Shown: piece by piece, positions 10,101 through 56,711 of the stretch | How the letters are laid out: each line of letters opens with the position of its first letter | How positions within the stretch are numbered: the first letter of the stretch is position 1 | Assembly: GCF_003966655.1 (NCBI RefSeq) | Contig: NZ_AP018795.1 | Span: forward strand, 2,497,501 to 2,561,500 | DNA: 64,000 nt | Origin: Acidithiobacillus ferridurans | GTDB taxonomy: Bacteria; Pseudomonadota; Gammaproteobacteria; Acidithiobacillales; Acidithiobacillaceae | Direction of reading: 5' to 3' | Made by a program: the position numbers and the translations under genes | Notes under the pieces: generated by a model | Told to the model about the DNA's origin: nothing | What the model saw: only the letters and a program-made list of their open reading frames with translations | Database searches by the model: none

Positions 10101-10511
10101 AGCCCATAGACTCCATCCTGAAAATTCCACGTACTTGTCGAGTTGTTCTTTTGCGTTATTCAAGTTGCCTGCAAGCACGAGCTTCTGCAATTCGGCGGCG
10201 ATCCGCCTGAATGAGTTTATTCGAATTGCCTGTGCTGTTAGCCAGTGTTTCGCCCAATGTAATTCATTTTCTAATGGCAATGGTAAGAGTGCATTTCTAT
10301 TCCAAATAAGTTCTGAAGTTGAGCGTGGCCCTAATGCATAGAGAGCAAGTGATGATTTTGGTGCCGCAGTGCGAAGCGACTTTATTATAGCTGCATATTC
10401 TTGTGGTGGGCGGGTAGCGCGTGCTTGACTCAGAACGTTTGTTGTTTTCTTATCACCTAACGCGTCGGCATTTCGAAACAACTTTCGCAACGACGTTTCA
10501 TTGTGCGTCAT
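7143..10511 (-). CDS. dtcA: Detocs sensor kinase DtcA
   Basis: The 1122-residue protein is mostly alpha-helical repeat-like sequence, with a histidine-kinase ATPase at the C-terminus: the N box FENAWKHSG near residue 1003 and a glycine-rich block EGGSGFPKLARL near 1070. A candidate phosphoacceptor histidine is in IALHNRVDTLINDL (about residue 900). There is no transmembrane segment, so it acts in the cytoplasm. DtcA proteins sense phage through the long N-terminal region and pass phosphate to DtcC or DtcB. The ATG at 10511 has a GGGGGG run 4-9 bases upstream. The gene is AT-rich relative to the conjugation genes, pointing to acquisition as a unit with dtcB and dtcC. Confidence 0.9.
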   Translation of the reverse strand: MTHNETSLRKLFRNADALGDKKTTNVLSQARATRPPQEYAAIIKSLRTAAPKSSLALYALGPRSTSELIWNRNALLPLPLENELHWAKHWLTAQAIRINSFRRIAAELQKLVLAGNLNNAKEQLDKYVEFSGWSLWAVELRAAFLQLADGTEAQRAWLHELQSKAINTIPGLLFHIFADRNDDTFSFDAIVGKCKNSFPRLDAIAPWLVDYLNYRALSYVDNPMQSFPRILSRDISSSLIDYYESVIELLGYIENEKQLTSLRPVARQLISYLLDNGYQDHRLNKLSVALQEISPISPISTEIHELPSEPYRAFYPGYIEHSYLNLPDDIASNLRICENKGAPAYDLLGKMLKWGLNLRGLDIGPAVAGYAFWVTSDVFDNRSLPISVALLTGSTCVDDIAAFSEEIGQRLIQNHLSHLGRCVDDEQLLKPSRWGFQNALPIVGPVYLWLANFLLAAQQFDELSRLTGFLGYKSQYWERQCAKFDLAAFARQDRFDEAIKLLTDWFLRDYRYAREFPTSLIFSGRKWNSFSKLDLIKVGLVAHYTFEAKGSDGVGYICKMACRKFLQNGMRKNIVKMYAAASELRKAQIVAFLRDVWIEQNMALCHQFESTAQVRSERMSVLQLLLGWDKERTAEYAEAIKELTLIQTLQQGLERIDQTRIFVNESAITRWAEKEIEQDYERWKKLGKPNTDGGAVDELLRMYALDPENIQILKDFADGRPTDADALFIDVIDRFFKRFLLDPTDGLDAYLSVRIRHGSFRGTILGPLEEQGLLYSTTGFSREAFETRWSDVLRLQDADKTLLLSTVQEFSYDIRKIVDDFVNQRIQVRSSEKPDGAFAQIVSPIFAKIFAASFAEQPPTFQAFLASGYFIFWKLIEIGLADLRQYVTETLAIALHNRVDTLINDLRFLEIYSLPLITTLTTVSTMTKSQCDTVAEWFQLPSEVAGEKYQLGSAIQIASAFTRNVHRAFNADIILRSVPDAPLFLTTSALAVLMDCLFVIFENAWKHSGLTVELPPIEVSIEFFSEHRLLTLAVYSELSFDRRQELLDGELDGLCKKYLGELPLELISLEGGSGFPKLARLTRSVPRFACPLPFDFGIVNGKWFTRLTVPLYERDGAYEAYE

Positions 10512-10846
10512 TTAACCCCCCGTTTTCTTGGAAACTTTGATTTAACTTAGTTGACTCATTGAAGGCGACCACAATAGATACAGAAAAAATTTGCACCAAA
10601 ATTCTCCAACATCACCTCTTCTATGAGCAATAAACAACCCAATTGCTACGGTATAAAATCTAAATGCAAGAATATATTTTATTCTTTATAGTAATATATT
10701 GTATCTCTTTCAATGGGTTACCTCTCGACATCAAACTCGGCGCTTCATATTTTCATCTTATGCTAATGCCAAGCTATTGGATCACGCCAAGCGTTCATAT
10801 CGAGTAGCGCGCTGGTTTTTTTGCTGCGTCCTGCTTGAATGTCATG
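10512..10846. other. intergenic region upstream of dtcA
   Basis: This is 335 bases of AT-rich sequence between the Detocs operon start and the end of the chorismate-mutase-like frame. It should contain the dtcA promoter. I see no clear repeat, RNA gene or strong terminator. Confidence 0.5.
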
Positions 10847-11161
10847 TTAGATTTCGATGCTGCAAGTATTTAGCGCTGCATGCTCAGCCAATTCAGCATT
10901 GATGAAGCCAGCAATCATTGCGCGGTAGACCTGCTCGGTAACGGTTGGGTTTGCGCCAAGCTCGACGGAAAGGGCCACGACTTTCGCAATGACCCGTTCA
11001 ACCCGCTGGGGTGCCTTGACGTCGGTGGTGGTTTTCTTGAACTTTGCCGCCTGTTTTACATAAGCCCCACGTTGTGCCAGTAGCGTAACAATCTGACGGT
11101 CAATGCGGTCGATATTGGATCGAATTTCTTCGATGAAGTTGCGCTTGACACTATTAATCAG
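10847..11161 (-). CDS. chorismate-mutase-like protein lacking a standard start codon
   Basis: The minus-strand frame from 11161 to the TAA at 10847 encodes about 104 residues that fit the AroQ/PchB chorismate mutase fold: EEIRSNIDRIDRQIVTLLAQR, YVKQAAKFKK, VKAPQRVERVIAKVVALSVELG and VYRAMIAGFINAEL. These enzymes convert chorismate to prephenate, or isochorismate to salicylate plus pyruvate. No ATG, GTG or TTG lies in frame before the domain. The best start is CTG at 11161, which has AAGGAG 9 bases upstream and overlaps a TGA of another frame (CTGA). It may be a rare CTG-initiated gene or a decayed gene without its first codon. It is isolated from any aromatic pathway gene. Confidence 0.6.
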   Translation of the reverse strand: MINSVKRNFIEEIRSNIDRIDRQIVTLLAQRGAYVKQAAKFKKTTTDVKAPQRVERVIAKVVALSVELGANPTVTEQVYRAMIAGFINAELAEHAALNTCSIEI

Positions 11162-11249
11162 AAATATTTCTCCTTGCGCCTTAGCCCAACGTCCGCTTTC
11201 AGTCTGGTGCTGTCAATCAGTGCTGCCACCCAATCCTTTACGGGTATAG

Positions 11250-12578: not shown

Positions 12579-14120
12579 GTGTTGGAGGCTCACCCAATGG
12601 GTGAACGCACTAAGCGGCCCCAAAAGCCCATTCCTGAGGCTATACAGAGCATGATTGTGGATACGATGGGCGGTCGTGTTCAGGTATCCTGGGATAAGGA
12701 ATCGGCAGCCACTCCCTTTGGCCAGTTGGTGTTCTTTGCCGAGTTTCAGAAAGTCAGTGGTTTGTTTGATGCTTGGGTAGAAGAATGTCCCTTGATCTAT
12801 AACAGCCCCAACGCACCCAAGAAGCGCGATGTATTGGGCACTTGGGATCTCTCCATACTGGCGGGTCACCGACGCTATGCACATGTCACTGGATTACGCA
12901 GTGATGGTGTCAGTCCGCAGATTCTGGGGATGAGCAAGATCGTCAGCGAAGACGCCCTGCGCCGGGCGCTGGGTAAAATCCCCGAAGGCGAAGGCACCGA
13001 ATGGATGCGCAAGCACTTGTTCAAAAGCGCAAAGGCAGCCTGTGACACGCCTTGGATTCTTGATATCGACACCACCATCAAAACGTTATTCGGGCATCAG
13101 CAAGGGGCTGAAGTAGGCTACAATCCGCACAAACCGGGGCGTCCATCCCATGCCTATCATGCGTACTGGGTCGGTAATCTGCGGCTATTGCTGGATGTAG
13201 AAGTGACAGCCGGCAACACCACGGCCTCCAACCATGCCCAACCGGGGCTGAACCGCGTACTGGACACCCTGAGTGCCGAACAGCGTCCTTATCTGGTCCG
13301 TGGCGACTGTGGCTTTGGCAATGATGCGGTTATCCGCGAGATGGAAGCGCGGCAGCAGTCCTATCTCTTCAAATTGCGTCAATCGCCCCGGGTCAAGCGC
13401 CTGTTACAGCGGGAATTTACCCGCCGTGACTGGGCGGATGCAGGACAAGGCTGGGAAGGCCGCGAAGACACGATTCAACTGGCCGGGTGGCAGCAGAGCC
13501 GCCGGGTAGTCATTCTCCGTCGCCTACTCAAAGACCATCTAATCGCCACCCAGGAACATCAAGGCCAGCTGGAATTTGCTTTCGTGGACCGTCGCCAGAC
13601 CAAGGTCTACGAATACGCCGTACTGGTGACGGATATCCAAGAAGGCATTCTGAGTATCGCGCAGTTGTACCGCGACCGGGCCGATGCGGAGAACGGTTTT
13701 GACGAACTCAAGAACCAGTGGGGATGGGGCGGGTACACCACTCGTGATCTGGCCCGTTGTCGGCTCTCCGCGCGTGCCGTGGGGCTGGTCTACAACTGGT
13801 GGAGCTGGTATTCCCGACTGGCTTTTCCGGGGTCACGGAGAGAAGCCATCACCAGTCGTCCATTGCTGCTCTCCGCTATAGGTCGCAGCACCAAACACGC
13901 TGGACAGATTCATCTTTTTCTGACACCCATGCATGCCGCGCAGAAAAAGGTGGAGCGCGGAATTGAGAATATCCGTAGAGGGTTGCGGATAGTTCGGGAG
14001 ACTGCGGAGCAGTTCCTGGAACACCAGCCCTGGGACCTCCTCGTGAGCTACATCGTTGCGCAAATTACGCGATCACCATGGTCACCGCCGGGGACTTTTC
14101 CGGCACTTGCCGGACCTTAA
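12579..14120 (+). CDS. IS1380-family transposase, copy 1
   Basis: The DDE transposase has 513 residues. Likely catalytic blocks are PWILDIDTTIKTLFG (first Asp, near residue 157), RGDCGFGNDAVI (second Asp, near 241) and YRDRADAENGFDELKNQWG (the Y-R-E signature with the catalytic Glu, near 365). The start is ATG at 12579, before the MGERTKRPQK sequence; an ATG at 12597 is also possible. The protein is identical to that at 27762-29303, so the two copies moved recently and at least one is probably active. Confidence 0.9.
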   Translation: MLEAHPMGERTKRPQKPIPEAIQSMIVDTMGGRVQVSWDKESAATPFGQLVFFAEFQKVSGLFDAWVEECPLIYNSPNAPKKRDVLGTWDLSILAGHRRYAHVTGLRSDGVSPQILGMSKIVSEDALRRALGKIPEGEGTEWMRKHLFKSAKAACDTPWILDIDTTIKTLFGHQQGAEVGYNPHKPGRPSHAYHAYWVGNLRLLLDVEVTAGNTTASNHAQPGLNRVLDTLSAEQRPYLVRGDCGFGNDAVIREMEARQQSYLFKLRQSPRVKRLLQREFTRRDWADAGQGWEGREDTIQLAGWQQSRRVVILRRLLKDHLIATQEHQGQLEFAFVDRRQTKVYEYAVLVTDIQEGILSIAQLYRDRADAENGFDELKNQWGWGGYTTRDLARCRLSARAVGLVYNWWSWYSRLAFPGSRREAITSRPLLLSAIGRSTKHAGQIHLFLTPMHAAQKKVERGIENIRRGLRIVRETAEQFLEHQPWDLLVSYIVAQITRSPWSPPGTFPALAGP

Positions 14121-27696: not shown

Positions 27697-29317
27697 CCTA
27701 AATTCGGCAGTTACCCCTGCTGATTTGGCAGGATTCCTCTGATAGGATTGATTTTTCCCCTGTGTTGGAGGCTCACCCAATGGGTGAACGCACTAAGCGG
27801 CCCCAAAAGCCCATTCCTGAGGCTATACAGAGCATGATTGTGGATACGATGGGCGGTCGTGTTCAGGTATCCTGGGATAAGGAATCGGCAGCCACTCCCT
27901 TTGGCCAGTTGGTGTTCTTTGCCGAGTTTCAGAAAGTCAGTGGTTTGTTTGATGCTTGGGTAGAAGAATGTCCCTTGATCTATAACAGCCCCAACGCACC
28001 CAAGAAGCGCGATGTATTGGGCACTTGGGATCTCTCCATACTGGCGGGTCACCGACGCTATGCACATGTCACTGGATTACGCAGTGATGGTGTCAGTCCG
28101 CAGATTCTGGGGATGAGCAAGATCGTCAGCGAAGACGCCCTGCGCCGGGCGCTGGGTAAAATCCCCGAAGGCGAAGGCACCGAATGGATGCGCAAGCACT
28201 TGTTCAAAAGCGCAAAGGCAGCCTGTGACACGCCTTGGATTCTTGATATCGACACCACCATCAAAACGTTATTCGGGCATCAGCAAGGGGCTGAAGTAGG
28301 CTACAATCCGCACAAACCGGGGCGTCCATCCCATGCCTATCATGCGTACTGGGTCGGTAATCTGCGGCTATTGCTGGATGTAGAAGTGACAGCCGGCAAC
28401 ACCACGGCCTCCAACCATGCCCAACCGGGGCTGAACCGCGTACTGGACACCCTGAGTGCCGAACAGCGTCCTTATCTGGTCCGTGGCGACTGTGGCTTTG
28501 GCAATGATGCGGTTATCCGCGAGATGGAAGCGCGGCAGCAGTCCTATCTCTTCAAATTGCGTCAATCGCCCCGGGTCAAGCGCCTGTTACAGCGGGAATT
28601 TACCCGCCGTGACTGGGCGGATGCAGGACAAGGCTGGGAAGGCCGCGAAGACACGATTCAACTGGCCGGGTGGCAGCAGAGCCGCCGGGTAGTCATTCTC
28701 CGTCGCCTACTCAAAGACCATCTAATCGCCACCCAGGAACATCAAGGCCAGCTGGAATTTGCTTTCGTGGACCGTCGCCAGACCAAGGTCTACGAATACG
28801 CCGTACTGGTGACGGATATCCAAGAAGGCATTCTGAGTATCGCGCAGTTGTACCGCGACCGGGCCGATGCGGAGAACGGTTTTGACGAACTCAAGAACCA
28901 GTGGGGATGGGGCGGGTACACCACTCGTGATCTGGCCCGTTGTCGGCTCTCCGCGCGTGCCGTGGGGCTGGTCTACAACTGGTGGAGCTGGTATTCCCGA
29001 CTGGCTTTTCCGGGGTCACGGAGAGAAGCCATCACCAGTCGTCCATTGCTGCTCTCCGCTATAGGTCGCAGCACCAAACACGCTGGACAGATTCATCTTT
29101 TTCTGACACCCATGCATGCCGCGCAGAAAAAGGTGGAGCGCGGAATTGAGAATATCCGTAGAGGGTTGCGGATAGTTCGGGAGACTGCGGAGCAGTTCCT
29201 GGAACACCAGCCCTGGGACCTCCTCGTGAGCTACATCGTTGCGCAAATTACGCGATCACCATGGTCACCGCCGGGGACTTTTCCGGCACTTGCCGGACCT
29301 TAACTGCTTTTTTTAGG
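27697..29317 (+). mobile_element. IS1380-type insertion sequence, copy 2 (1621 bp)
   Basis: Its length, ends and encoded transposase are the same as copy 1 at 12514-14134. It is flanked by a different 5-bp duplication, ATAAA at 27692-27696 and 29318-29322. The differing duplications mean that the two copies inserted independently rather than as one composite transposon, although they are in direct orientation 13.5 kb apart. Confidence 0.92.
27762..29303 (+). CDS. IS1380-family transposase, copy 2
   Basis: The 513 residues are identical to those of the gene at 12579-14120, including ILDIDTT, RGDCGFG and YRDRADAENGFDELK. The gene is transcribed against the polysaccharide operon it interrupts, so its own transcript would be antisense to the N-terminal part of the sqdB-like gene if the hairpin at 29280-29314 failed to stop it. 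Confidence 0.92.
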   Translation: MLEAHPMGERTKRPQKPIPEAIQSMIVDTMGGRVQVSWDKESAATPFGQLVFFAEFQKVSGLFDAWVEECPLIYNSPNAPKKRDVLGTWDLSILAGHRRYAHVTGLRSDGVSPQILGMSKIVSEDALRRALGKIPEGEGTEWMRKHLFKSAKAACDTPWILDIDTTIKTLFGHQQGAEVGYNPHKPGRPSHAYHAYWVGNLRLLLDVEVTAGNTTASNHAQPGLNRVLDTLSAEQRPYLVRGDCGFGNDAVIREMEARQQSYLFKLRQSPRVKRLLQREFTRRDWADAGQGWEGREDTIQLAGWQQSRRVVILRRLLKDHLIATQEHQGQLEFAFVDRRQTKVYEYAVLVTDIQEGILSIAQLYRDRADAENGFDELKNQWGWGGYTTRDLARCRLSARAVGLVYNWWSWYSRLAFPGSRREAITSRPLLLSAIGRSTKHAGQIHLFLTPMHAAQKKVERGIENIRRGLRIVRETAEQFLEHQPWDLLVSYIVAQITRSPWSPPGTFPALAGP

Positions 29318-47677: not shown

Positions 47678-49315
47678 ATGCAGATGCCTGTACCCGCCTC
47701 ATCCCGTTCTGGGAACCAAACCGAAAAGAAAGATCCCCGTCTTGAGCTTGCCGACCGCCTGATTGCACAGATCGAGGCAGGAACTGCCAACTGGCAACGC
47801 CCCTGGAACCCTGGCGATGTGTTGGCTCCGGTCAGCGCTGTCACCGGCAAGCCCTACAGAGGGGTGAACTACCAAAATCTTCTGACGTTTTCTCCTGACC
47901 CATCCGATCCACGTTGGTGTACCTATAAGCAGGCCCAGGAGCAGGGTTGGCAGGTGCGCAAGGGTGAACATGGGATTCCCATCGAAAAATGGTCTGAGTA
48001 TGCGCACAAGCGCACCGACGAGGAAATCGAGCGGCTCAGAGCGCAGGGTGCTCAGGATATTGAGCCTGTGGAAAAGCGGCTGGGTGTCCGTTACTACACC
48101 GTATTTCATGCTTCCCAGATCGACGGCATCCCGCCACTGGAGCGGTCCCCGCGTCCGGAGATTGAGGGGAAACCCGATGAGCGCCTGTCAAAGCTGGCCG
48201 AGAACATGGGCATGGACGTGATTCACGCCGGTGGCCGGGCCTTTTATCGTCCCTCTGAGGACAGGGTGTTTATGCCGCCAATAGAGAGCTTCGAGCGTGC
48301 AAGCGGTCATGATACCACCCTGCTGCATGAGCTTTCCCATGCGACAGGTCATGAATCCCGGCTGAAGCGAGAAATCCGGAACCCTTTTGGCAGCCCAAAA
48401 TATGCCGTCGAAGAGTTGCGGGCGGAGATGTCGGCGGCCATGACCGCAGCGAGCCTTGGGATCGGTTTTGATCCCGCGTCTCAGGATTTGGAAGAAGGCC
48501 GCGAGGCGGGCAATTCCGCCGCCTATCTCGCCTCATGGCTCAAGGCTTTGCCGGAAAAAGAGCGCAAGCAGGCCATCATGGGCGCGATCAAGGATGCCCA
48601 GGGCATCAGCGATTACCTCATCGAGCGGACGCCGGAATTGCAGGTTGAAGCCGCGCAGGAGCGGGCTGGTCCGACCGTCTCCCGTGGTGATTATGTCCGG
48701 TACAAGAATGAGATCGGACAAGAACTGGAAGGCGTGGTGCTTGACGATGCCCAGCCCGGTGAAGCAACGCGACTGCGGCACATCACCCGGTGGCCCAACG
48801 GCACGCCGCTTATGGAGGCGGCGGATCACATTATGCCCGTGGTGCTGCCGGACGTTCTGGAGGTGCATCTTGTATCGGCGGTTCGGGATGGTGTTGCGCT
48901 GAACGGGGTGGATTCGCGGACGAATGAATATAAGTTGACCATGGGGAGCGACATGGAGCGTCGCAAAATGGAAAACCGGGTACTGATGGATGTTGAGCGC
49001 GCGCGTGGCATTTACCCAACCTTTACTAAAGAAGGGCCTCAAGTTGGTGATCTCGTGCGTTTTGAGCCGCATGAACCTGGTGTAACGAGCATGTCCTTTT
49101 CGGGGCGTGTCATTGCGGCACTGGATACCAATACCGGCGATGTGCGTTATCACCTGCGGGCGGGGACGGGGCCAGAAAATGGCGCTGAGGCGCGGGTGTA
49201 TGGCCGGGATGGACAGTTCCGTGGGATCGCTCTGGAGCAGGCTGTGGGATTCGACCGGGCTCTCGCTCCAGAAGCAGAGAAAGCCCCCGGATTCAGGTCG
49301 GGGACTTCGTGGTAA
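47678..49315 (+). CDS. ardC: ArdC-type antirestriction protein with metallopeptidase domain
   Basis: Residues 20-130 form the ArdC N-terminal single-strand-binding domain (DRLIAQIEAGTANWQRPWNP, GKPYRGVNYQNLL, WCTYKQAQEQGWQVRKGEHG). Residues 165-300 are a zincin domain with TTLLHELSHATGH, an HExxH motif, followed by the conserved EELRAEMSAAM. The C-terminal 200 residues contain two YRYK/DLVRFEPHE-type small beta domains. ArdC protects incoming single-stranded DNA from host restriction. It is the first gene of the conjugation region and has the bipartite motif upstream. Start ATG 47678 or 47684. Confidence 0.88.
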   Translation: MQMPVPASSRSGNQTEKKDPRLELADRLIAQIEAGTANWQRPWNPGDVLAPVSAVTGKPYRGVNYQNLLTFSPDPSDPRWCTYKQAQEQGWQVRKGEHGIPIEKWSEYAHKRTDEEIERLRAQGAQDIEPVEKRLGVRYYTVFHASQIDGIPPLERSPRPEIEGKPDERLSKLAENMGMDVIHAGGRAFYRPSEDRVFMPPIESFERASGHDTTLLHELSHATGHESRLKREIRNPFGSPKYAVEELRAEMSAAMTAASLGIGFDPASQDLEEGREAGNSAAYLASWLKALPEKERKQAIMGAIKDAQGISDYLIERTPELQVEAAQERAGPTVSRGDYVRYKNEIGQELEGVVLDDAQPGEATRLRHITRWPNGTPLMEAADHIMPVVLPDVLEVHLVSAVRDGVALNGVDSRTNEYKLTMGSDMERRKMENRVLMDVERARGIYPTFTKEGPQVGDLVRFEPHEPGVTSMSFSGRVIAALDTNTGDVRYHLRAGTGPENGAEARVYGRDGQFRGIALEQAVGFDRALAPEAEKAPGFRSGTSW

Positions 49316-52300
49316 CCCGGAGAAATCAATTCGGGGCAGACTGGAACACTTCCTCCATTGTTACCCTCATCGATGACTCCGAAGTCCGGTTGCAGGACCT
49401 CTACCGCTCTGGCCAGGAGTGGGAAGTCTCCCCAGCCGGGCGAAAGATGGCTCGTGAGGACTTTGATGCGGCTCTCCGTCATCAGGTCAGTGGCGTGGTG
49501 CCGCCGGAGAACGTATCAGAAAAGCTTGACTCTGCCGCCAGCCGTGACCGGTTCGTCGGTGCGGTCCGGGCTTTTGATGCCGAACACAGTCTCCTGTACG
49601 GCAAGGAATCAGCCCCATTGACAAAAGTCCCCGACGAAGTGCGGACATTTCTGGGCGTACAGCAGGCGTCTGTGACAGACAAGCTACTCCGCAGCAGCGA
49701 AGAAAAGAGCTTTTTCTCGGACAAGATGCAGGAACTACGGGAGATCATCCGGCAGATGCCGGAAACCTATGAGACCGACGGCAAGCCGGACAGCGAGCGA
49801 CCAGTCTCCCTGCGCTACTTCGGCCCCAACGGTGCCCAGTGGTTCATCATCGAGAAGGATCGCGGAGATCCGGAAAACGAGGGACACGGTCCCACGGTGC
49901 CTGGCTTGCCAGATCAGACCCAAGCCTTTGGCCTGGCAGACCTTGGTATGGGATACCCGGAACTGGGATATATCAACATCCCGGAGATCACCCGTGCCGG
50001 GGCAGAACTGGACTACCATTTCACCCCCGCCACTCTCCTGGAGATCAAACGGGAGCACTACCCGGATCGGCTTCCACCCGAGCAACGCCCGGAAGATCTC
50101 CGCAAGGAACAGGCGCTTCAGGAGTACCAGGCGTTTTATGCCCAGTTGTCAGAGCGGGAAGAGAAACTGGTAACGGAGGTTCGCGAGCGCTCTGGGCGCC
50201 TCGCCCCAGCGGATTTCCATGGCTTCTCCGACATGATGCGGGATTTCAGCAAGCGTGTGGACGATACCTTTGGGATCATCCGGGAGGGAGAAAACCGAGG
50301 AGCGTCGGCCCCGGAGCTGCGTTTAGCGCAGGCGCTCGCCACGGAAGACATCTCCGGTCTGCCTGCCGTCAATACCGCGCGTGAACAGGCCAGGCGACTA
50401 GGCGAGCGATTTCACGATCTGGATAAAGAGGTCCGGGCCAGCTTCAAGGCGCGGCTCAAGGAGCATGGCAAGGCATTGCTGGAGTCGAGTACGCCGCGCG
50501 AACCCCGGGAGATCGTGCTGGCAACGTACTGGAAGCATGGCATCGAGGTCAGTCCGGACAACCCCATGATCGGGAAACTCACGGATGCGATCCGGGACAA
50601 GGATCTCAAGGCCATGATAGGGCTCATTGGCTATAACAGCCAGAATCCGGCATCAGAGGAAGCCTTTTCACGAGTCACTGGGATAAAAATGGAGAAAACC
50701 CAGTCTGGGCGTGTTGCCCAGTTGCAGGAATGGGCCGGTGTAGAAAAGGTGCAAGCTTTAACGGAAAGCCATGCGGCGGCCAAGCAGGAGCGGGAAGCGC
50801 AAAGCCTGAAAAACGGGATGACCAAGGCGTGGGACGACCTGAAGGGGCTACGTGTACAGGTCGGCGATCAAGTGGTGAATGGTCAGGAATATGTCGCCCT
50901 GAAAGTCGCCAAGGGTCAGGATCGTGTTACTTCTGGCAAGTCGGGCGCGGCCACGACGTACCATCTGGTCAATGAACAGGGCGAGTATTCCAGCGTCAAG
51001 GACGTGCGTTTCACGGCCTTTGCCAAGCGGGTTTTGGTCATGAACGCCGATGGCAATGTGCGTAACGCCCTGGAGCAGGCGGGGATTGCGCACGGAATGG
51101 CCCTGGAGGTTACCCAGAAGTCGGCCATTGAACTGCAGAAAGAGCAAAAAAAGCCAGACACTGCACCTGAACTGCCCGGAAAGAACGCCTATGAGCAAAA
51201 ATTCGAAGCGCGCAAGGAGCGGTATCGCGCCAGGGCGGAAAAGTTGCGGGGCTTGGCGAAGTCCCGTCTGGATCAGGCGCGCAGAATGGCGGATGTCATT
51301 CCTTTTGGTCAGCCGATCCTGGTTGGCCACCACAGCGAAAAGAGCGACCGAAAGTTCCGTGAGCGTATCCACCAGAACTTTGGCAAAGGCTTCGACTTGT
51401 TGAAGCAGGCAGAGCATTACGAGCGCCGCGCCAAGGGTGTCAACGACTACGCGATCAGTGCGGACGATCCGGATGCCGTGAAAAAGCTTACGGCCAGGGT
51501 GGAGACCCTTAAGACGGCCCAGGAACGGATGAAGGCGGCGAATGCCGCTATCCGTAATCATGAGAAAAACGGACCAGAGGCGCAGCAAGCCGCCCTGGAG
51601 GGCTTGGGCTTCAAGCCAGAGCAGGCCAAGAGCCTGCTGACCCCGGACGTTATGGGCACGGTGGGCTTCGCGTCTTATTCGCTCAGCAATAACAACGCGA
51701 ACATCAAGCGCCTGGAGGCGCGCATACAGACGCTGGAGAAAGCCCGGAAGCTTGAAGACCGGGAGACTCAATATGCCTGGGGTTCGGTGCGGGAAAACAA
51801 GGAAATTAACCGCATCCAGTTCCGCTTCGATGGCAAGCCTGAGGAAGAGGTACGCAATCTCATGAAGTCGAGCGGATTTCGTTGGGCACCGTCTGAAAGC
51901 GCCTGGCAGCGGCAGTGGACGGGCAATGCCGTATATGCCGCGCGGGATGTCATCAAAAAACTGGATGAGAGGATGCCGCCTGAGCAGATGGTAGCTGCAC
52001 CTGAGTCGGCGCCAACCCCCGACATTGCATCCGCCCAGAAAGTGGACCGCGAACCGAACTTGCGCGACCCCAGCGCAGCACTGGAGGCGGCTATCAAGGA
52101 TCGGGACGGCACCTGGCACAACCTGTCTGCATACGAGAAGGACAGGGTATTAGTCGGCACCTTGCAACGGCTGAATGCCGAGACGGGTAATTACGAGAAG
52201 GTGCCTGTGGAGTTTTGTCCGGGGGGTGTCGGCGGGTTGCAGGCGAGAGCGCATTTCCCGGACGGCTCACGGCTGCGTGTTTCGCTGTCTCGATCGAATC

Positions 52301-52569
52301 CCTCTGAGATTCAATCGTCCAGGGTGGACGTGCGCGTCTACGGTGAAAAGCAGGACATGGACGGGAAGGTCACGCTGACGCAGATCCACGAGCATCCCGG
52401 TCGCCTGCGGGCCAATGAAGCCCTGCAGAAGATCCCCGACCACAGGGAAGGGAAGGTCATCAAGCAGGCTTTGGGTGTGGACCCGAAGATGCTGAACCCG
52501 CAGCCCTCACGCGAGGCGCAAAAAGCCCCGGACAAAGTGCGGGAGCAACGGCAAGGGGTGGAAATTTAG
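49309..52569 (+). CDS. large polyvalent protein with DUF2958-like domain
   Basis: The protein has 1086 residues. Residues 150-255 resemble DUF2958 (VSLRYFGPNGAQWFIIEKD, FGLADLGMGYPELGYINI, ELDYHFTPATLLEIKREH). Long helical and coiled-coil stretches follow (Glu/Lys/Arg-rich, 255-500 and 590-800). The C-terminal 150 residues (IKDRDGTWHNLSAYEKD to DPKMLN) are shared with the next gene. The start GTG 49309 overlaps the ardC stop; the frame is open further upstream (IQVGDFVV), so the true start is uncertain. Polyvalent proteins of this kind are thought to enter recipients with transferred DNA; this is family-level knowledge, not shown here. Confidence 0.7.
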   Translation: MVTRRNQFGADWNTSSIVTLIDDSEVRLQDLYRSGQEWEVSPAGRKMAREDFDAALRHQVSGVVPPENVSEKLDSAASRDRFVGAVRAFDAEHSLLYGKESAPLTKVPDEVRTFLGVQQASVTDKLLRSSEEKSFFSDKMQELREIIRQMPETYETDGKPDSERPVSLRYFGPNGAQWFIIEKDRGDPENEGHGPTVPGLPDQTQAFGLADLGMGYPELGYINIPEITRAGAELDYHFTPATLLEIKREHYPDRLPPEQRPEDLRKEQALQEYQAFYAQLSEREEKLVTEVRERSGRLAPADFHGFSDMMRDFSKRVDDTFGIIREGENRGASAPELRLAQALATEDISGLPAVNTAREQARRLGERFHDLDKEVRASFKARLKEHGKALLESSTPREPREIVLATYWKHGIEVSPDNPMIGKLTDAIRDKDLKAMIGLIGYNSQNPASEEAFSRVTGIKMEKTQSGRVAQLQEWAGVEKVQALTESHAAAKQEREAQSLKNGMTKAWDDLKGLRVQVGDQVVNGQEYVALKVAKGQDRVTSGKSGAATTYHLVNEQGEYSSVKDVRFTAFAKRVLVMNADGNVRNALEQAGIAHGMALEVTQKSAIELQKEQKKPDTAPELPGKNAYEQKFEARKERYRARAEKLRGLAKSRLDQARRMADVIPFGQPILVGHHSEKSDRKFRERIHQNFGKGFDLLKQAEHYERRAKGVNDYAISADDPDAVKKLTARVETLKTAQERMKAANAAIRNHEKNGPEAQQAALEGLGFKPEQAKSLLTPDVMGTVGFASYSLSNNNANIKRLEARIQTLEKARKLEDRETQYAWGSVRENKEINRIQFRFDGKPEEEVRNLMKSSGFRWAPSESAWQRQWTGNAVYAARDVIKKLDERMPPEQMVAAPESAPTPDIASAQKVDREPNLRDPSAALEAAIKDRDGTWHNLSAYEKDRVLVGTLQRLNAETGNYEKVPVEFCPGGVGGLQARAHFPDGSRLRVSLSRSNPSEIQSSRVDVRVYGEKQDMDGKVTLTQIHEHPGRLRANEALQKIPDHREGKVIKQALGVDPKMLNPQPSREAQKAPDKVREQRQGVEI

Positions 52570-52636
52570 AGGTGTTGGTGGATGTATGACGTTGTTATGT
52601 GAACGGTTTTTCTGAAGACGAAAAGGAGTATGTGAT

Positions 52637-53794
52637 ATGGCTACACGGATGATGCAACGGAACAACCTGGCGGACGCTTTTGTACAGGTCAATGACGAAC
52701 AGACGAACGCCGCCTTGAAAGCAGCCAAGGAGAATATCGGGGATGCGGAGTGGAAAAAAGGGTATTCCCAGGAGAGCAAGTCGGTGGTCCGCGAGTCTCT
52801 GAAGGAGCATGGGGCGCGTTATGAGCAGACACTGAAGGGCAACCTTGTTGGGGTGGATGTGGCCGAAACGCAGGCCAATGGGGAAACCTTCAAGAAGCTG
52901 CGCGTCACGCTGGAGAACGAGGTCGGCAAGACCATCCTGTCGGCGGATATGAACTCTGAATTTGCCCAACGGCTGATTACCAAACTCGACACCGCAACCC
53001 GAGAGCACGCGGGTAAAGAGGTGGACGTTGGTGCTTTCGCCAAACATACGGAACGGGGTGATCGGGTGTTTGTGGATCATATCGCCACGATGAAAGACGC
53101 TGCCGGGCAGGAAATCCCCGCCGCTCAGGGGCATTTCGAGAAGGCCAAAGACCGGGTGTTGGCGACCCAAAAACCGCTTCTGGACGCCGGCATGTCGGAC
53201 AAGAAGGTCTTGAATCAGATTGCCGCCAGTGCCCGTGAGAGCTACTTCGTCGAAGTGGCCGCCGGCTTGTCTGAGCGGATGGTGGAGCAGGGGATTACGC
53301 CGAGTGTCAACGAGCGCCACGAATTCCCGGCGCTGGAGGCGGGCATCAAGGACCGCGATGGCACCTGGCAGAACCTGTCCGCCTATGAAAAAGACGGGCA
53401 GTTGGTCGGCACCTTGCAGCGGCGGGATGCCGAGACGGGCAATTACGAGAAGGCGCCCGTAGCCTTTGAGCCGGACGGCAAAGGGGCGCTGGTGGCCGAA
53501 GCCGTCTATGAATGGGGTGAGAAGTTGACCGTCAACCTCTCCCGCTCCGAGCCAACACAGGGCGGACACGAAAAAGTGGATGTCCGGATACTCTCCGGCG
53601 ATGAGCAGATCCACGAGCACCCCGGTCGCCTGCGGGCCAATGAAACCCTGCAGAAGATCCCCGACCACAGGGAAGGGAAGGTCATCGAGCAGGCTTTGGG
53701 TGTGGACCCGAAGATGCTGAACCCGCTGCCGCCGCGTGACGTGCAAAAGGCTCCGGCCAAAACGCAAGAGAAGCAGCAGGAGGTGGGACTATGA
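52637..53794 (+). CDS. polyvalent protein sharing a C-terminal module with the upstream gene
   Basis: The 385-residue protein begins MATRMMQRNNLADAFVQVND. Residues 225-375 repeat the module of the preceding protein: KDRDGTWQNLSAYEKDGQLVGTLQRRDAETGNYEK, then HEHPGRLRANETLQKIPDHR and EGKVIEQALGVDPKMLNP. The DNA encoding the last part is nearly identical in the two genes (52390-52500 and 53618-53729), showing recent duplication or conversion. The first 220 residues are helical with no recognised domain. AAGGAG precedes the ATG; the stop overlaps the next start (ATGA). Confidence 0.7.
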   Translation: MATRMMQRNNLADAFVQVNDEQTNAALKAAKENIGDAEWKKGYSQESKSVVRESLKEHGARYEQTLKGNLVGVDVAETQANGETFKKLRVTLENEVGKTILSADMNSEFAQRLITKLDTATREHAGKEVDVGAFAKHTERGDRVFVDHIATMKDAAGQEIPAAQGHFEKAKDRVLATQKPLLDAGMSDKKVLNQIAASARESYFVEVAAGLSERMVEQGITPSVNERHEFPALEAGIKDRDGTWQNLSAYEKDGQLVGTLQRRDAETGNYEKAPVAFEPDGKGALVAEAVYEWGEKLTVNLSRSEPTQGGHEKVDVRILSGDEQIHEHPGRLRANETLQKIPDHREGKVIEQALGVDPKMLNPLPPRDVQKAPAKTQEKQQEVGL

Positions 53795-54069
53795 GCCTGG
53801 CCGAGGAGTTGATCGAATGGGCCGAGGAAGAGGTGGAGCACGGCAACCCCGCACACAAGGAGCAGGTTGCCTTGATTCTCGCGCAACTGCATGAGATCGC
53901 CGACCCGGAATCCCTGCCGGTTGGCTCTACCCAGCGATTCCTCGCACAGCGGCGCGTGGACAAGCTGGTGGAGAAGGCTGAAGCGTTGGGTTTTGAGACG
54001 CCGGGGAAGATGTTGAAAAAGGAGATCGGCAAGAAACTTGCCGGTCAGGCTTTGGGCATAAACCTGTAA
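53791..54069 (+). CDS. small acidic-helical hypothetical protein
   Basis: This 92-residue protein overlaps the preceding gene by 4 bases. It begins MSLAEELIEWAEEEVEHGNP, is mostly helical, and ends with a Lys/Gly segment (GKMLKKEIGKKLAGQALGINL). No known family is recognised. Its position and coupling point to a partner of the large polyvalent protein before it. Confidence 0.6.
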   Translation: MSLAEELIEWAEEEVEHGNPAHKEQVALILAQLHEIADPESLPVGSTQRFLAQRRVDKLVEKAEALGFETPGKMLKKEIGKKLAGQALGINL

Positions 54070-54079
54070 GGAGAGTCCC

Positions 54080-54469
54080 ATGTTTGGATTTTTTAAGGCC
54101 CTGACGGGGAACTCCGCCTCGAAGGGGCATGCTCCCGGCAAGGGCCGTGCGCTCAGCAATTTGTTGGTGGGCGGTTATCCGGAGCATTTGTATCCTGTGG
54201 ATGATCCCCAAGGGGTCGGCGGGTATCAGTTGGCCATCGAGGCGCTGATACGCGATGAGTCGCCCGAGGTGATTTATTTGCGCTCGGAGACCGAGGATCT
54301 ATCCGTGGTCCGCAAGGGGCTCGCATACCTCTCCCGCATCGGTGGTCAAGTCGGTGTCGCCGATCAGCTTCCCGATGAAGAGGTCGCGGCCCTGTTTGGT
54401 GTCGATGTCCGTTCGTACCAGTCGGCGGTTGTGAACCCACAAGGGGATGCTGCGGCTTATGCAGGATGA
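54080..54469 (+). CDS. hypothetical 129-aa protein
   Basis: The product begins MFGFFKALTGNSASKG and continues with an alpha/beta pattern (LSNLLVGGYPEHLYPVDDPQ, GYQLAIEALIRDESPEVIYL, GLAYLSRIGGQVGVADQLPD). AAGGAGAG precedes the ATG with good spacing. It overlaps the start of the next gene by 23 bases. I recognise no domain; a small nucleotide- or DNA-related fold is possible but unsupported. Confidence 0.6.
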   Translation: MFGFFKALTGNSASKGHAPGKGRALSNLLVGGYPEHLYPVDDPQGVGGYQLAIEALIRDESPEVIYLRSETEDLSVVRKGLAYLSRIGGQVGVADQLPDEEVAALFGVDVRSYQSAVVNPQGDAAAYAG

Positions 54470-56711
54470 TCTGACGCGCGCCCCTCGTTTCCTTTGGGGA
54501 GACTTTCCAGATGTCCTGCGTAATGGGAATCTTGGGGAGCTGAAACAGCAGCCGGAGTACATGGCGGCCAAATCTGGGGAGAGCGAGGCGGCATTGAATC
54601 TGGCTAGTCGTATCATCCGCACGGATTTCGTCGAAGCTGTGGCGCGTTTGGGTGCATCACATCCCAAACCGGTCTTGTTGCCGGTGTTGGCTGTAGAGTC
54701 TGTGGGCCGGAACAAGATTCCGCAGATGCTGGCGGAAACACTATCTGCCCGTCTGGGTTGGAGGACGGAAAGCGGTATCGTCCAAATATCCAGGGCTATG
54801 CACACGGATTCTGGGGCTGATCATCGACTTGTGTCTCATTCATTTTTTGACGGGAAAATCGATCCTGATGCGGGCTATATCCTCATCGATGACACCTTAA
54901 CGATGGGCGGCACACTCGCTGATTTTCGTGGATTCATCATGAGCCGTGGCGGTCAGGTGATGGGCGCTGCTGTAGCAGTGGCTCATGAGGGAGCGTTGCA
55001 CTTGCCAATTCGCGACAAGATGCTGCAAGATATATTTGCTAAATACGGTAAAGATATTGTTCAGGAGTTTTCTCATGAAGAGTTCGGCTACGGAATCGAG
55101 TGCCTCACCCAAGGAGAGGCTGGAGACGTCCGAAAAGCCATTTCTCTTGACGCCCTCAGAGATCGACTCACTGCGGCAAGAGATGCGCGCTTCCAGCGAA
55201 TGGGCGAAGAAAGAGTTGCGCCGTCGGATGGAAAAAATCTCTCAGAATTAGAAGAACCAACAGAACCCCCTCTAGATCACCCCAATCTCCACCCGCCGCC
55301 CGACGCACTCAACCGTAATGATTCTTTGGTTGAGATAATTTCACGCGGAGGGCACGTCATGGCAGCACAACTCGATCACCTTTTGTCCTACGGTCCTATG
55401 GACGTAGTGGCCAGTAACGAAGAAAAGAACCCAGGGCTTCACATTGTGAACGTGGACGCCGAAAGTCGCGCGTTCATTCCCCAGAATGATCCGTTGCATC
55501 AGGAAATCCGGAACATCGTCGCTAAAAATCCGCATAGTCTGGGGTTCGCGGCCAACCTGATCAACGCGCGGCTTGAACAGGATGGCCGTTGGCAGGGGCC
55601 GGAGCGGGAAGCTGAGGGCTTGAGTTTCAGTCCATCGCTGAATCCGGAACGGGAGATGCACGAGATAGAGACGTTTCCGGCGCAGAATGTGGATTTGCCG
55701 GACGGGCTCAAGGCGGCACTCAATCCGCGCGTCGAACTGCGTCCTGTGGTGCTTCGTGAGGGGAGCCGCATGGCTCCCAAAACCATGGAGCAGGGTGACA
55801 AGCTGGTGGGGTATGTGGTGAATGGCAAGACTGACCCGCTACCAGGAACAGTTTATGGCGAGGACAACCTTTTCCCGGGGAAGCAACAGCAGTTTGGCCT
55901 TGATGATCTCGATAATGCCCGTCTGGCCGCGCAGGCGATTGCGCAGGGCACGGCCATCAACTTCGACACCCTGGAGGCCGGATTTAAGGAACGGACAGGG
56001 TACAATTTTGAGGATCGTTACTTCTCCGTCTCCGAAGACCGCCAGAAGCATCTGGAACAATGGGGGACTCAAAAAACGCAGCATATGGAGCGGCAGATGG
56101 GCGGGGTGGATATCGGCGAACCAGCGATCACCACGCCGGCGAAAGAAGCGGAAGTCGCCCCGGCAATAGGCGCGGAAAAAACGCCAGACCCGGTGACGCA
56201 GAAAACAGGGCCGGAAGTGGACCCGCTCGTGGTTTGGCCGAAAGTGAAGCCCGAACCGGAACTGTTGCCGTTGGCGCAGCCGACACAAGAGGTATCGAAG
56301 CCGCAATTTGAGCGCAAGACGCCACCCGAAGTGCTCTTTGCCAATCCCAAAGGCAAGCCTTATGTGCTGGATCATGGCGACAAGGTGACGGTGACGAATC
56401 GCGCGATGTTGGGCTTGGGGTCTGAGGCGGCGGCGAAGCGGCAAAAAGCGGTCGAGGTGGGGCTGATGACCGCCGTGGACCGGTTCGGTGAGCCCGTGCG
56501 CTTTCATGGCAGCCGCGCTTTCATGGAAGAGACGGTAAAGGTGGCGATGGAACGCGGAATCAAGCTGGAGCCCGGCAGCCCCATGGCCAAAGAGATTTAC
56601 GAGCGGGCGGCCAGGGAGCACGGGAATCAGCTTGGCCCGTCGAAGGCTGCGCCGTATCGGGCCCCTGAGAAAAAGCGTGAAGTGGGCAAGGACAAGGGGC
56701 TCGGTCTGTGA
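54447..56711 (+). CDS. polyvalent protein: phosphoribosyltransferase-like plus LPD7-like domains
   Basis: The protein has up to 754 residues. Residues 60-230 resemble a type I phosphoribosyltransferase, with the PRPP loop YILIDDTLTMGGTLADFRGF near 145. A proline/glutamate-rich middle (560-640) joins to a C-terminal LPD7-like domain (VTVTNRAMLGLGSEAAAKRQ, GEPVRFHGSRAFMEETVKVA). Such combinations occur in polyvalent proteins of conjugative elements. The first ATG is 54447; ATG 54459 (MQDDLTRAP) may be the start because the first has a ribosome site with no spacing. A role in nucleotide salvage or in modifying a host target is possible. Confidence 0.75.
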   Translation: MLRLMQDDLTRAPRFLWGDFPDVLRNGNLGELKQQPEYMAAKSGESEAALNLASRIIRTDFVEAVARLGASHPKPVLLPVLAVESVGRNKIPQMLAETLSARLGWRTESGIVQISRAMHTDSGADHRLVSHSFFDGKIDPDAGYILIDDTLTMGGTLADFRGFIMSRGGQVMGAAVAVAHEGALHLPIRDKMLQDIFAKYGKDIVQEFSHEEFGYGIECLTQGEAGDVRKAISLDALRDRLTAARDARFQRMGEERVAPSDGKNLSELEEPTEPPLDHPNLHPPPDALNRNDSLVEIISRGGHVMAAQLDHLLSYGPMDVVASNEEKNPGLHIVNVDAESRAFIPQNDPLHQEIRNIVAKNPHSLGFAANLINARLEQDGRWQGPEREAEGLSFSPSLNPEREMHEIETFPAQNVDLPDGLKAALNPRVELRPVVLREGSRMAPKTMEQGDKLVGYVVNGKTDPLPGTVYGEDNLFPGKQQQFGLDDLDNARLAAQAIAQGTAINFDTLEAGFKERTGYNFEDRYFSVSEDRQKHLEQWGTQKTQHMERQMGGVDIGEPAITTPAKEAEVAPAIGAEKTPDPVTQKTGPEVDPLVVWPKVKPEPELLPLAQPTQEVSKPQFERKTPPEVLFANPKGKPYVLDHGDKVTVTNRAMLGLGSEAAAKRQKAVEVGLMTAVDRFGEPVRFHGSRAFMEETVKVAMERGIKLEPGSPMAKEIYERAAREHGNQLGPSKAAPYRAPEKKREVGKDKGLGL

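What the first reader, a model, noticed from the sequence alone, without database searches (positions are those of the whole stretch)
49309..53794. Recently duplicated 150-residue module ending two adjacent polyvalent proteins
The module (KDRDGTW..LSAYEKD to ALGVDPKMLN) ends both the 1086-aa and the 385-aa protein, and its last 110 bases are almost identical in DNA while the middle differs. It may be a targeting or secretion signal used by several transferred proteins.
Basis: partly seen in the sequence, partly recalled or inferred. Interest (0 to 1): 0.55.

Follow-up and report, generated by a model that had tools for sequence, protein, structure and literature searches.

The report
Shared C-terminal delivery tag in ICEs
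In Acidithiobacillus-type bacteria, many unrelated proteins of conjugative DNA elements end in the same small beta-barrel and/or the same kind of four-residue tail, which looks like an address label for sending them into the recipient cell, though no transfer has been measured.

Summary
In detail: a ~155-residue module ends both window ORFs (52072-52566; 53324-53791), and 120 bases near its end are 97% identical. "Recently duplicated" does not: the pair is present in four sister elements, and the near-identity is a mosaic/gene-conversion patch. The 1086-aa ORF is the downstream part of a frameshifted ArdC-DUF3560 polyvalent gene.

The module is a new family: 11 of 29 genomes of the window's family, none besides the own one in class and phylum samples. 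It is the last domain in 24 of 25 proteins examined, behind unrelated partners (ArdC/DUF3560, HipA toxin, Toprim, HEAT). All 11 genomes also have a VirD4/TraG coupling protein. AlphaFold2 gives a beta-barrel, helices and a disordered tail.

A short tail, G-(V/I/L/M)-(E/Q)-(R or hydrophobic), also ends module-less proteins of these elements (37 at the exact end versus 0.7 per other offset): hydrophobic in one coupling-protein clade, mostly Arg elsewhere. Relaxases of the hydrophobic-tail elements end G-x-E-I-E. Best reading: barrel plus tail recruit cargo to the type IV secretion system. Translocation is inferred only.

The parts
47678..49315 (+). ORF 545 aa: ArdcN + MPTase-PolyVal domains; upstream part of the polyvalent gene, interrupted by a frameshift near 49291-49303
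   Evidence: Pfam; tblastn of sister 1748-aa and 1459-aa proteins changes frame
49309..52569 (+). ORF 1086 aa: DUF2958 + DUF3560 + C-terminal module; downstream part of the same polyvalent gene
52072..52566 (+). module copy 1 (165 aa) incl. tail ending GVEI
   Evidence: profile E 2.4e-64 in own genome (this copy is one of the profile's 22 rows)
52384..52503 (+). 120 nt, 97% identical to 53609-53728 (recent homogenised patch)
   Evidence: codon alignment
52637..53794 (+). ORF 385 aa: N-terminal domain (no Pfam family over cut-off) + C-terminal module
52637..53323 (+). N-terminal domain; a relative stands alone (228 aa) on a Paraburkholderia fungorum megaplasmid
53324..53791 (+). module copy 2 (156 aa): predicted beta-barrel, helices, disordered tail ending EVGL
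   Evidence: AlphaFold2 pLDDT about 90 over most of the barrel
53609..53728 (+). 120 nt matching 52384-52503
52555..52566 (+). C-terminal tail GVEI of the module protein
53791..54069 (+). 92-aa ORF; five sister copies end GIEL/GLQL, this copy ends GINL
54447..56711 (+). 754-aa LPD7 protein without the module; tail KGLGL
   Evidence: sister tails KGIGL in L029, L030, L031
57563..59131 (+). 522-aa relaxase (DUF3363 / RlxS-like), K/R/E/Q-rich tail ending GSEIE

Best explanation
The module plus its tail is a C-terminal delivery region for protein cargo of the Trb/VirB-type conjugation systems of these elements. The disordered, K/R/E/Q/P-rich tail ending G-(V/I/L/M)-(E/Q)-(R or hydrophobic) would be the address, read by the element's coupling protein (or an adaptor) so that polyvalent antirestriction proteins, primase-like proteins, LPD7 proteins and a HipA toxin go into the recipient with the relaxase. 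The barrel would be a docking or loading domain that many, not all, of these cargoes carry; its middle segment is swapped between copies by recombination. Shown: shared module, its C-terminal position, its diverse partners, tail enrichment, coupling-protein co-occurrence, terminal residue following the coupling-protein clade (with exceptions), mosaic exchange. Inferred: recognition by the coupling protein, and translocation.
For: Module last in 24 of 25 proteins, with ArdC/DUF3560, HipA, Toprim_3, HEAT, an N-domain family, or alone. Module genomes: 11 of the 14 with a PF02534 match over 280 bits (my threshold), 0 of the 15 others (Fisher 1e-5); with Pfam's own cut-off 11 of 17 and 0 of 12; in five genomes with one main contig 10 of 10 module loci lie within 77 kb of a strong match, against 0 of 20,000 random placements. 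A VirB/Trb system lies just downstream of the window (TrbE-, TrbL-, VirB8-, CagX-, TrbI-like). Tail regex: 37 at the exact end of 1500 ORFs against a mean of 0.71 (max 5) at 79 other offsets; with the 24 module proteins left out, 15 of 1030 against 0.49 (max 5). All six relaxases of the hydrophobic-tail elements end in K/R/E/Q-rich GSEIE or GPEIE. Three families (polyvalent, 385-aa type, LPD7) end hydrophobic in the window's group and mostly Arg elsewhere; the coupling proteins of four of the six hydrophobic-tail elements, those that could be linked by contig, lie in one clade (100/100). Published precedent: a conjugative Fic toxin with a relaxase-derived BID domain (PMC5675462, passages) and C-terminal signals rich in positive or hydrophobic residues (PMC11288057, passages).
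Against: No translocation data. The tail motif was chosen after seeing it, and its carriers fall into few homologous families. The later-fetched loci gave only 3 ends of 798 against a mean of 0.41, with another offset reaching 5, and two of the three look like homologues of proteins already seen, judging by their ends. Genome-wide, GxxER-stop is no commoner than its reversed control in 22 of 29 genomes. Exceptions: L033's other large proteins end LGF, GIA and GLAV; L037's polyvalent ends EWER; L038's ends LDFE; the 91-aa proteins of L037 and L039 end GLGL; L027's LPD7 ORF ends PSVR; the window's small protein ends EVGL and L032's ends EQAL. Net charge of the last 25 residues is only +2 against +1. 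Three of 14 coupling-protein genomes (G008, G021, G024) lack the module. The barrel itself is absent from many tail proteins.
Confidence: 0.5

Rival explanations
1. Docking hub inside the donor: barrel and tail bind one element-encoded partner (relaxosome, partition or replication complex), so the proteins gather at the element's DNA, not in the secretion channel.
For: Same comparative facts. Short shared C-terminal tips as docking hubs are known from SSB (recalled). Several carriers have DNA-processing domains.
Against: Does not by itself explain a HipA toxin (with an HTH-like ORF just upstream, judged by eye) carrying the module, nor the similar relaxase tail in six elements.
Confidence: 0.25
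2. The barrel is itself an effector domain (ligand-binding or anti-defence) active in the recipient, kept variable by recombination; the tail is incidental to it.
For: Middle segment differs sharply between copies while its flanks stay alike; predicted barrel resembles binding barrels; stand-alone 188-aa copies exist (L028).
Against: Tail also ends proteins with no barrel. An effector domain need not be last, yet it is in 24 of 25 proteins. Fold resemblance is weak (best Z 9.1, unrelated rows near 8).
Confidence: 0.15
3. No common function: homologous C-termini spread by recombination and gene conversion between neighbouring genes of related elements.
For: Mosaic exchange is clear; module found almost only in one bacterial family among those sampled.
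Against: Conversion between homologous ends cannot by itself place a module on HipA, Toprim and HEAT proteins, nor matching tails on module-less families.
Confidence: 0.1

Closest known systems
BID domain on VbhT/Bep proteins and TraA relaxases (Bartonella)
   Same: C-terminal domain shared by a toxin-antitoxin toxin and conjugation proteins next to a type IV system; PMC5675462 passages read
   Different: BID is helical (recalled) while this module is predicted beta-barrel; here the window's relaxase has no module, only a similar tail
Short C-terminal type IV translocation signals (Agrobacterium VirB/D4, Legionella Dot/Icm, F-plasmid substrates)
   Same: short C-terminal ends, positive or hydrophobic, on unrelated proteins (PMC11288057 passages)
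   Different: here a near-fixed terminal tetrapeptide shared within an element and differing between elements; no transfer assay
Polyvalent proteins of conjugative elements (Iyer et al. 2017, PMC5512222, passages)
   Same: ArdcN, MPTase-PolyVal and LPD domains in the carriers; proposed transfer with the DNA
   Different: the passages read name no common C-terminal delivery domain or tail; DUF3560, HipA and Acidithiobacillus have zero occurrences in its main text
TraI internal translocation signal domains (TSA/TSB)
   Same: structured signal in a conjugation substrate (PMC3912908, listing and abstract start only)
   Different: internal (PMC8406263 passage) and helicase-derived (PMC11288057 passage); this one is C-terminal and has no Pfam match over cut-off

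Membership tests
C-terminal type IV translocation signal (works like) | Located at the C-terminus of several unrelated proteins | tested here: met
   Module last in 24 of 25 proteins; tail at exact end 37 vs 0.71
C-terminal type IV translocation signal (works like) | Carriers encoded with a VirD4/TraG coupling protein | tested here: met
   11 of 11 module genomes (G011 on weak module hits only); 10 of 10 loci within 77 kb in five genomes with one main contig
C-terminal type IV translocation signal (works like) | Shared with the relaxase, the obligatory substrate | tested here: inconclusive
   Six of six relaxases of hydrophobic-tail elements end GSEIE/GPEIE, similar but not identical; relaxases of Arg-tail elements not identified
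C-terminal type IV translocation signal (works like) | Net positive, disordered end | tested here: met
   K/R/E/Q/P fraction 0.52 (27 tail proteins) vs 0.28 (387 other ORFs, antisense ones included), net charge +2 vs +1; AlphaFold2 pLDDT under 50 at residues 146-163
C-terminal type IV translocation signal (works like) | Necessary and sufficient for transfer | not testable with these tools
   needs a conjugation reporter assay
BID domain | Helical fold (recalled) | tested here: not met
   AlphaFold2 of the module has seven strands, residues 11-98; no Pfam match over its cut-off in the module region
Polyvalent proteins | Several disparate enzymatic and mobile-element domains in one chain | tested here: met
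   ArdcN, MPTase-PolyVal, DUF2958, DUF3560 in the large carriers; the 385-aa protein has no Pfam domain over cut-off
Lipocalin/avidin-like barrels | Up-and-down beta-barrel fold | tested here: inconclusive
   Best VIA-align Z 9.1 to a designed barrel, 6 chains at Z 8 or more; no Foldseek match at E 0.001 or below

The most novel reading that the evidence does not exclude
Each of these conjugative elements carries its own C-terminal address code (G-x-E-R in several lineages, G-x-E/Q-hydrophobic in one coupling-protein clade) read by its coupling protein. The code is written on a whole set of unrelated early-recipient proteins, including a HipA toxin, and on many of them it is presented by a new beta-barrel domain whose middle segment is exchanged between copies.
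Probability: 0.33. Interest if true: 0.78.

Novelty: new variant of a known kind. Interest (0 to 1): 0.6.

Why it matters
How type IV systems choose protein cargo is still poorly understood, and signals vary widely (PMC11288057 passages). A readable tail shared across an element's proteins, changing with the coupling protein, would make cargo prediction from sequence possible and gives a ready set of natural swaps to test recognition. The HipA fusion would be another case, beside the Fic and PezT cases of PMC5675462, of a toxin fitted for delivery during conjugation.

Tried and rejected
Internal duplication within the 385-aa protein: weak phmmer self-matches were not upheld by profile comparison of module and N-domain (probability 0.4). 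Known domain: no match over its cut-off fell in the module region in the Pfam and NCBIfam scans, nor a significant PHROG or PDB-sequence match; weak Pfam matches with E 0.08-0.18 did (DUF7586, Rib, FMN_bind_2, GH101_dom-5, DUF2712) and were left aside. Wider distribution: PLSDB plasmids gave no match for the module; IMG/VR gave none for three queries; genome contigs gave 2 loci. One, L007 (Acidithiobacillus ferruginosus CF3), has the contig length and ORF coordinates of G010:C287 and was counted once; the other, L006, is on an 8.9-kb contig of a MAG labelled Acidiphilium, so either the module also occurs outside the family or the contig is misbinned; I could not tell. Structure of the whole 385-aa protein was too poor to use (pLDDT 44). 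Fold relatives: no family stood clear of unrelated rows. I first took the window's element for ICEAfe1-like (notes, entries 3 and 4); PMC6370655 passages say ICEAfe1 has a Tra-type system while the window's is Trb/VirB-type, so I dropped that. Does every DUF3560 or N-domain protein carry the tail? No: 0 of 4 DUF3560 proteins in other genomes, 0 of 2 on plasmids, and not the Paraburkholderia N-domain protein. One protein of PromA-like plasmids, annotated 'DNA replication protein', does end KGIER. Count of the GxxER pattern near coupling proteins, done by hand in G000, G004, G014, G019 and G022: 10 of 22 hits within 15 kb, about 0.4 expected from the DNA covered; the hits are partly homologues, and one (G000:2577365) was not matched to a gene.

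Literature: no description of this module or tail was seen in the listings (titles and abstract starts) or in the passages read of five papers; the library holds only open-licence PMC papers, so this is no proof of absence.
Full report
WHAT IS THERE. Two adjacent + strand ORFs, 49309-52569 (1086 aa) and 52637-53794 (385 aa), end in a shared module (52072-52566 and 53324-53791). The alignment score is far above shuffles (510 against a maximum of 86 in 200). DNA identity runs 80%, 44%, 97% and 61% along N part, middle, a 120-nt stretch and tail. The window lies at 2,497,501-2,561,500 of a 2,921,399-base single-contig genome. That genome holds five copies: the window pair, a second pair about 220 kb upstream, and a stand-alone 188-aa copy.

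NOT A RECENT DUPLICATION. The big/small pair exists in L027, L029, L030 and L031 as well. The 120-nt stretch that is 97% alike inside the window is 82-83% between the window's small protein and those of L027, L029, L030, and 75-80% between the big ones. The middle of the window's big copy is nearest to the small proteins of L029 and L031 (70-71%), against 44% for its own neighbour. L29_big and L30_big share the middle (97%) but not the tail (72%), while L27_big and L30_big share the tail (97%) but not the middle (35%). I read this as an old pair whose segments are exchanged by recombination. The window's big gene is also frameshifted: the sister proteins of 1459 and 1748 aa align to the 545-aa ORF up to about 49303 and then to the 1086-aa ORF in another frame.

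A NEW MODULE FAMILY. A single-sequence search hit 9 of 57 relatives; a profile of 22 copies (A1) hit 11 of 29 genomes of the family, 1 of 369 of the class and 1 of 398 of the phylum, the one being the window's own genome. Most hits were used to build the profile; G005 (E 1.8e-25) and two weak partial G011 hits were new, and the G011 ones were not examined. A further copy lies on a small contig of a MAG labelled Acidiphilium (L006), which may be a real outside case or misbinning. In 25 proteins examined (24 from the loci and the window, plus L136:1985-2713) the module is the last domain in 24; L033:9528-10349 has about 110 residues after it, and the 826- and 824-aa proteins of L035 and L036 carry a second, internal copy. 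The partners are: ArdcN/MPTase-PolyVal/DUF2958/DUF3560; an N-domain family with no Pfam match over cut-off; HipA with the HipA N-domain (L032:2046-3821, with an ORF at 1635-2033 just upstream that looks by eye like an HTH antitoxin); Toprim_3 (L035); HEAT repeats (L035); a possible nucleotidyltransferase, below Pfam's cut-off (L041); and stand-alone copies (L028, L034). The N-domain occurs without the module as a 228-aa protein on a Paraburkholderia fungorum megaplasmid, near TraG and ArdC genes.

STRUCTURE. AlphaFold2 on five sequences gives seven strands between residues 11 and 98, at pLDDT about 90 for most of them, helices near 114-117 and 125-132, and a disordered end from 146 (mean pLDDT 78.5, pTM 0.73; two of the five models near 60). 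The best structural neighbours are designed and avidin-type barrels at Z 7-9, which may mean only a common arrangement.

LINK TO CONJUGATION. A VirB/Trb-type system follows the window: TrbE-, TrbL-, VirB8-, two CagX- and TrbI-like proteins and a coupling protein at 2,580,271. Of 29 family genomes, 14 have a PF02534 match over 280 bits (my threshold); all 11 module genomes are among them, and 0 of the 15 others have the module (Fisher 1e-5). With Pfam's own cut-off the split is 11 of 17 and 0 of 12. The genomes are related, so either figure overstates independence. In the five genomes with one main contig that hold both (G000, G004, G014, G019, G022), the distances from the 10 module loci to the nearest strong coupling protein are 3-77 kb. 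In fragmented genomes some module contigs carry one (G005:C26, G007:C73, G013:C190) and others do not. G008, G021 and G024 have a strong coupling protein and no module.

THE TAIL. The regex G[VMIL][EQ][RIFLM] sits exactly at the C-terminus of 37 of 1500 six-frame ORFs of at least 90 aa in the element loci, against a mean of 0.71 (max 5) at 79 other offsets. Without the 24 module proteins, 15 of 1030 (mean 0.49, max 5) remain: five 92-aa proteins, three module-less ArdC polyvalents, two Toprim_2 primase-like proteins and five LPD7 proteins. The loci are related, so this is four families, not 15 events, and I chose the regex after seeing it. In later-fetched loci (L126-L145) it was 3 of 798 (mean 0.41, one other offset 5); two of the three look like homologues of proteins already seen. 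Other stretches of the own genome gave 1 of 457, a 448-aa protein in L078, about 3.5 kb from a coupling protein; plasmids outside the family gave 2 of 1026, both the same PromA-type protein ending KGIER. The GxxER-stop DNA pattern is no commoner than its reversed control in 22 of 29 genomes; it is commoner in 7, G000 and G007 most.

ELEMENT-SPECIFIC ENDS. In the window's group (window, L027, L029-L032) the polyvalent, 385-aa type, 92-aa, LPD7 and HipA proteins mostly end hydrophobic (GVEI, GVEF, GMEF, GVQL, GIEL, GLQL, GLGL, GIGL; also EVGL, EQAL and GINL off the motif; the LPD7 ORF of L027 ends PSVR). In L028, L034, L035, L036 and L037-L040 most end Arg (GLER, GVER, GMER, GIER). Exceptions are L037's 1442-aa protein (EWER), L038's 1110-aa protein (LDFE), the 91-aa proteins of L037 and L039 (GLGL), and L033, where the module protein ends GVER but three other large proteins do not. 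Coupling proteins of four hydrophobic-tail elements, those that could be linked on one contig, lie in one clade (100/100) with six unlabelled rows; Arg-tail elements span several deep lineages. The six relaxases of the hydrophobic-tail elements end in a K/R/E/Q-rich stretch and GSEIE or GPEIE, close to GVEI with one residue more. Relaxases of Arg-tail elements were not identified.

MECHANISM. I propose that the tail is read by the coupling protein or an adaptor, and that the barrel is a docking or loading domain used by a subset of cargo. Donor-side steps and delivery are inference. The published parallel is VbhT, a conjugative toxin with the delivery domain of the relaxase (PMC5675462, passages). 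C-terminal signals rich in positive or hydrophobic residues are on record for type IV systems (PMC11288057, passages), and F-plasmid establishment proteins do cross (PMC8406263, abstract start and passages). Polyvalent proteins have been argued to travel with the DNA (PMC5512222, passages).

NOVELTY. The module family and the shared tail were not met in the listings and passages seen. As a kind of thing, a C-terminal type IV signal is known; what would be new is a beta-barrel delivery domain and an element-wide tetrapeptide address that follows the coupling-protein clade.

Noticed in passing
window 49291-49303: The ArdC-DUF3560 polyvalent gene is split by a frameshift; sister elements have it as one ORF of 1459-1748 aa.
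   Followed up: partly
L032:1635-3821: An HTH-like ORF (by eye) followed by HipA carrying the module at its C-terminus: a toxin-antitoxin pair possibly fitted for transfer.
   Followed up: partly
window 12579-14120 and 27762-29303: Two ORFs of 513 aa with the same first 30 and last 22 residues, possibly an insertion-sequence transposase.
   Followed up: no
L124:19207-19950 and L148:2898-3641: A protein of PromA-like plasmids outside the family, annotated 'DNA replication protein' and lying between primase and coupling protein genes, also ends KGIER.
   Followed up: partly
L126:8632-10248 and 10251-11192; L078:18653-19999: Large proteins end GMER in the Arg-tail elements; those of L126 (538 and 313 aa) have no Pfam or NCBIfam match over cut-off, that of L078 (448 aa, cut by the stretch) only a weak Pfam match.
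   Followed up: partly
L029:2910-3899; L137:4436-5386; L027:4922-5911: A 316-329-aa protein, next to the polyvalent gene in L027 and L029 and near the coupling protein gene in L137, ends GPEL or GPKL, another G-x-E/K-L end.
   Followed up: no
L006 (contig DAIDMG010000097.1): A module copy 78% identical to the window's sits on a low-coverage contig of a MAG labelled Acidiphilium: outside host or misbinning.
   Followed up: no
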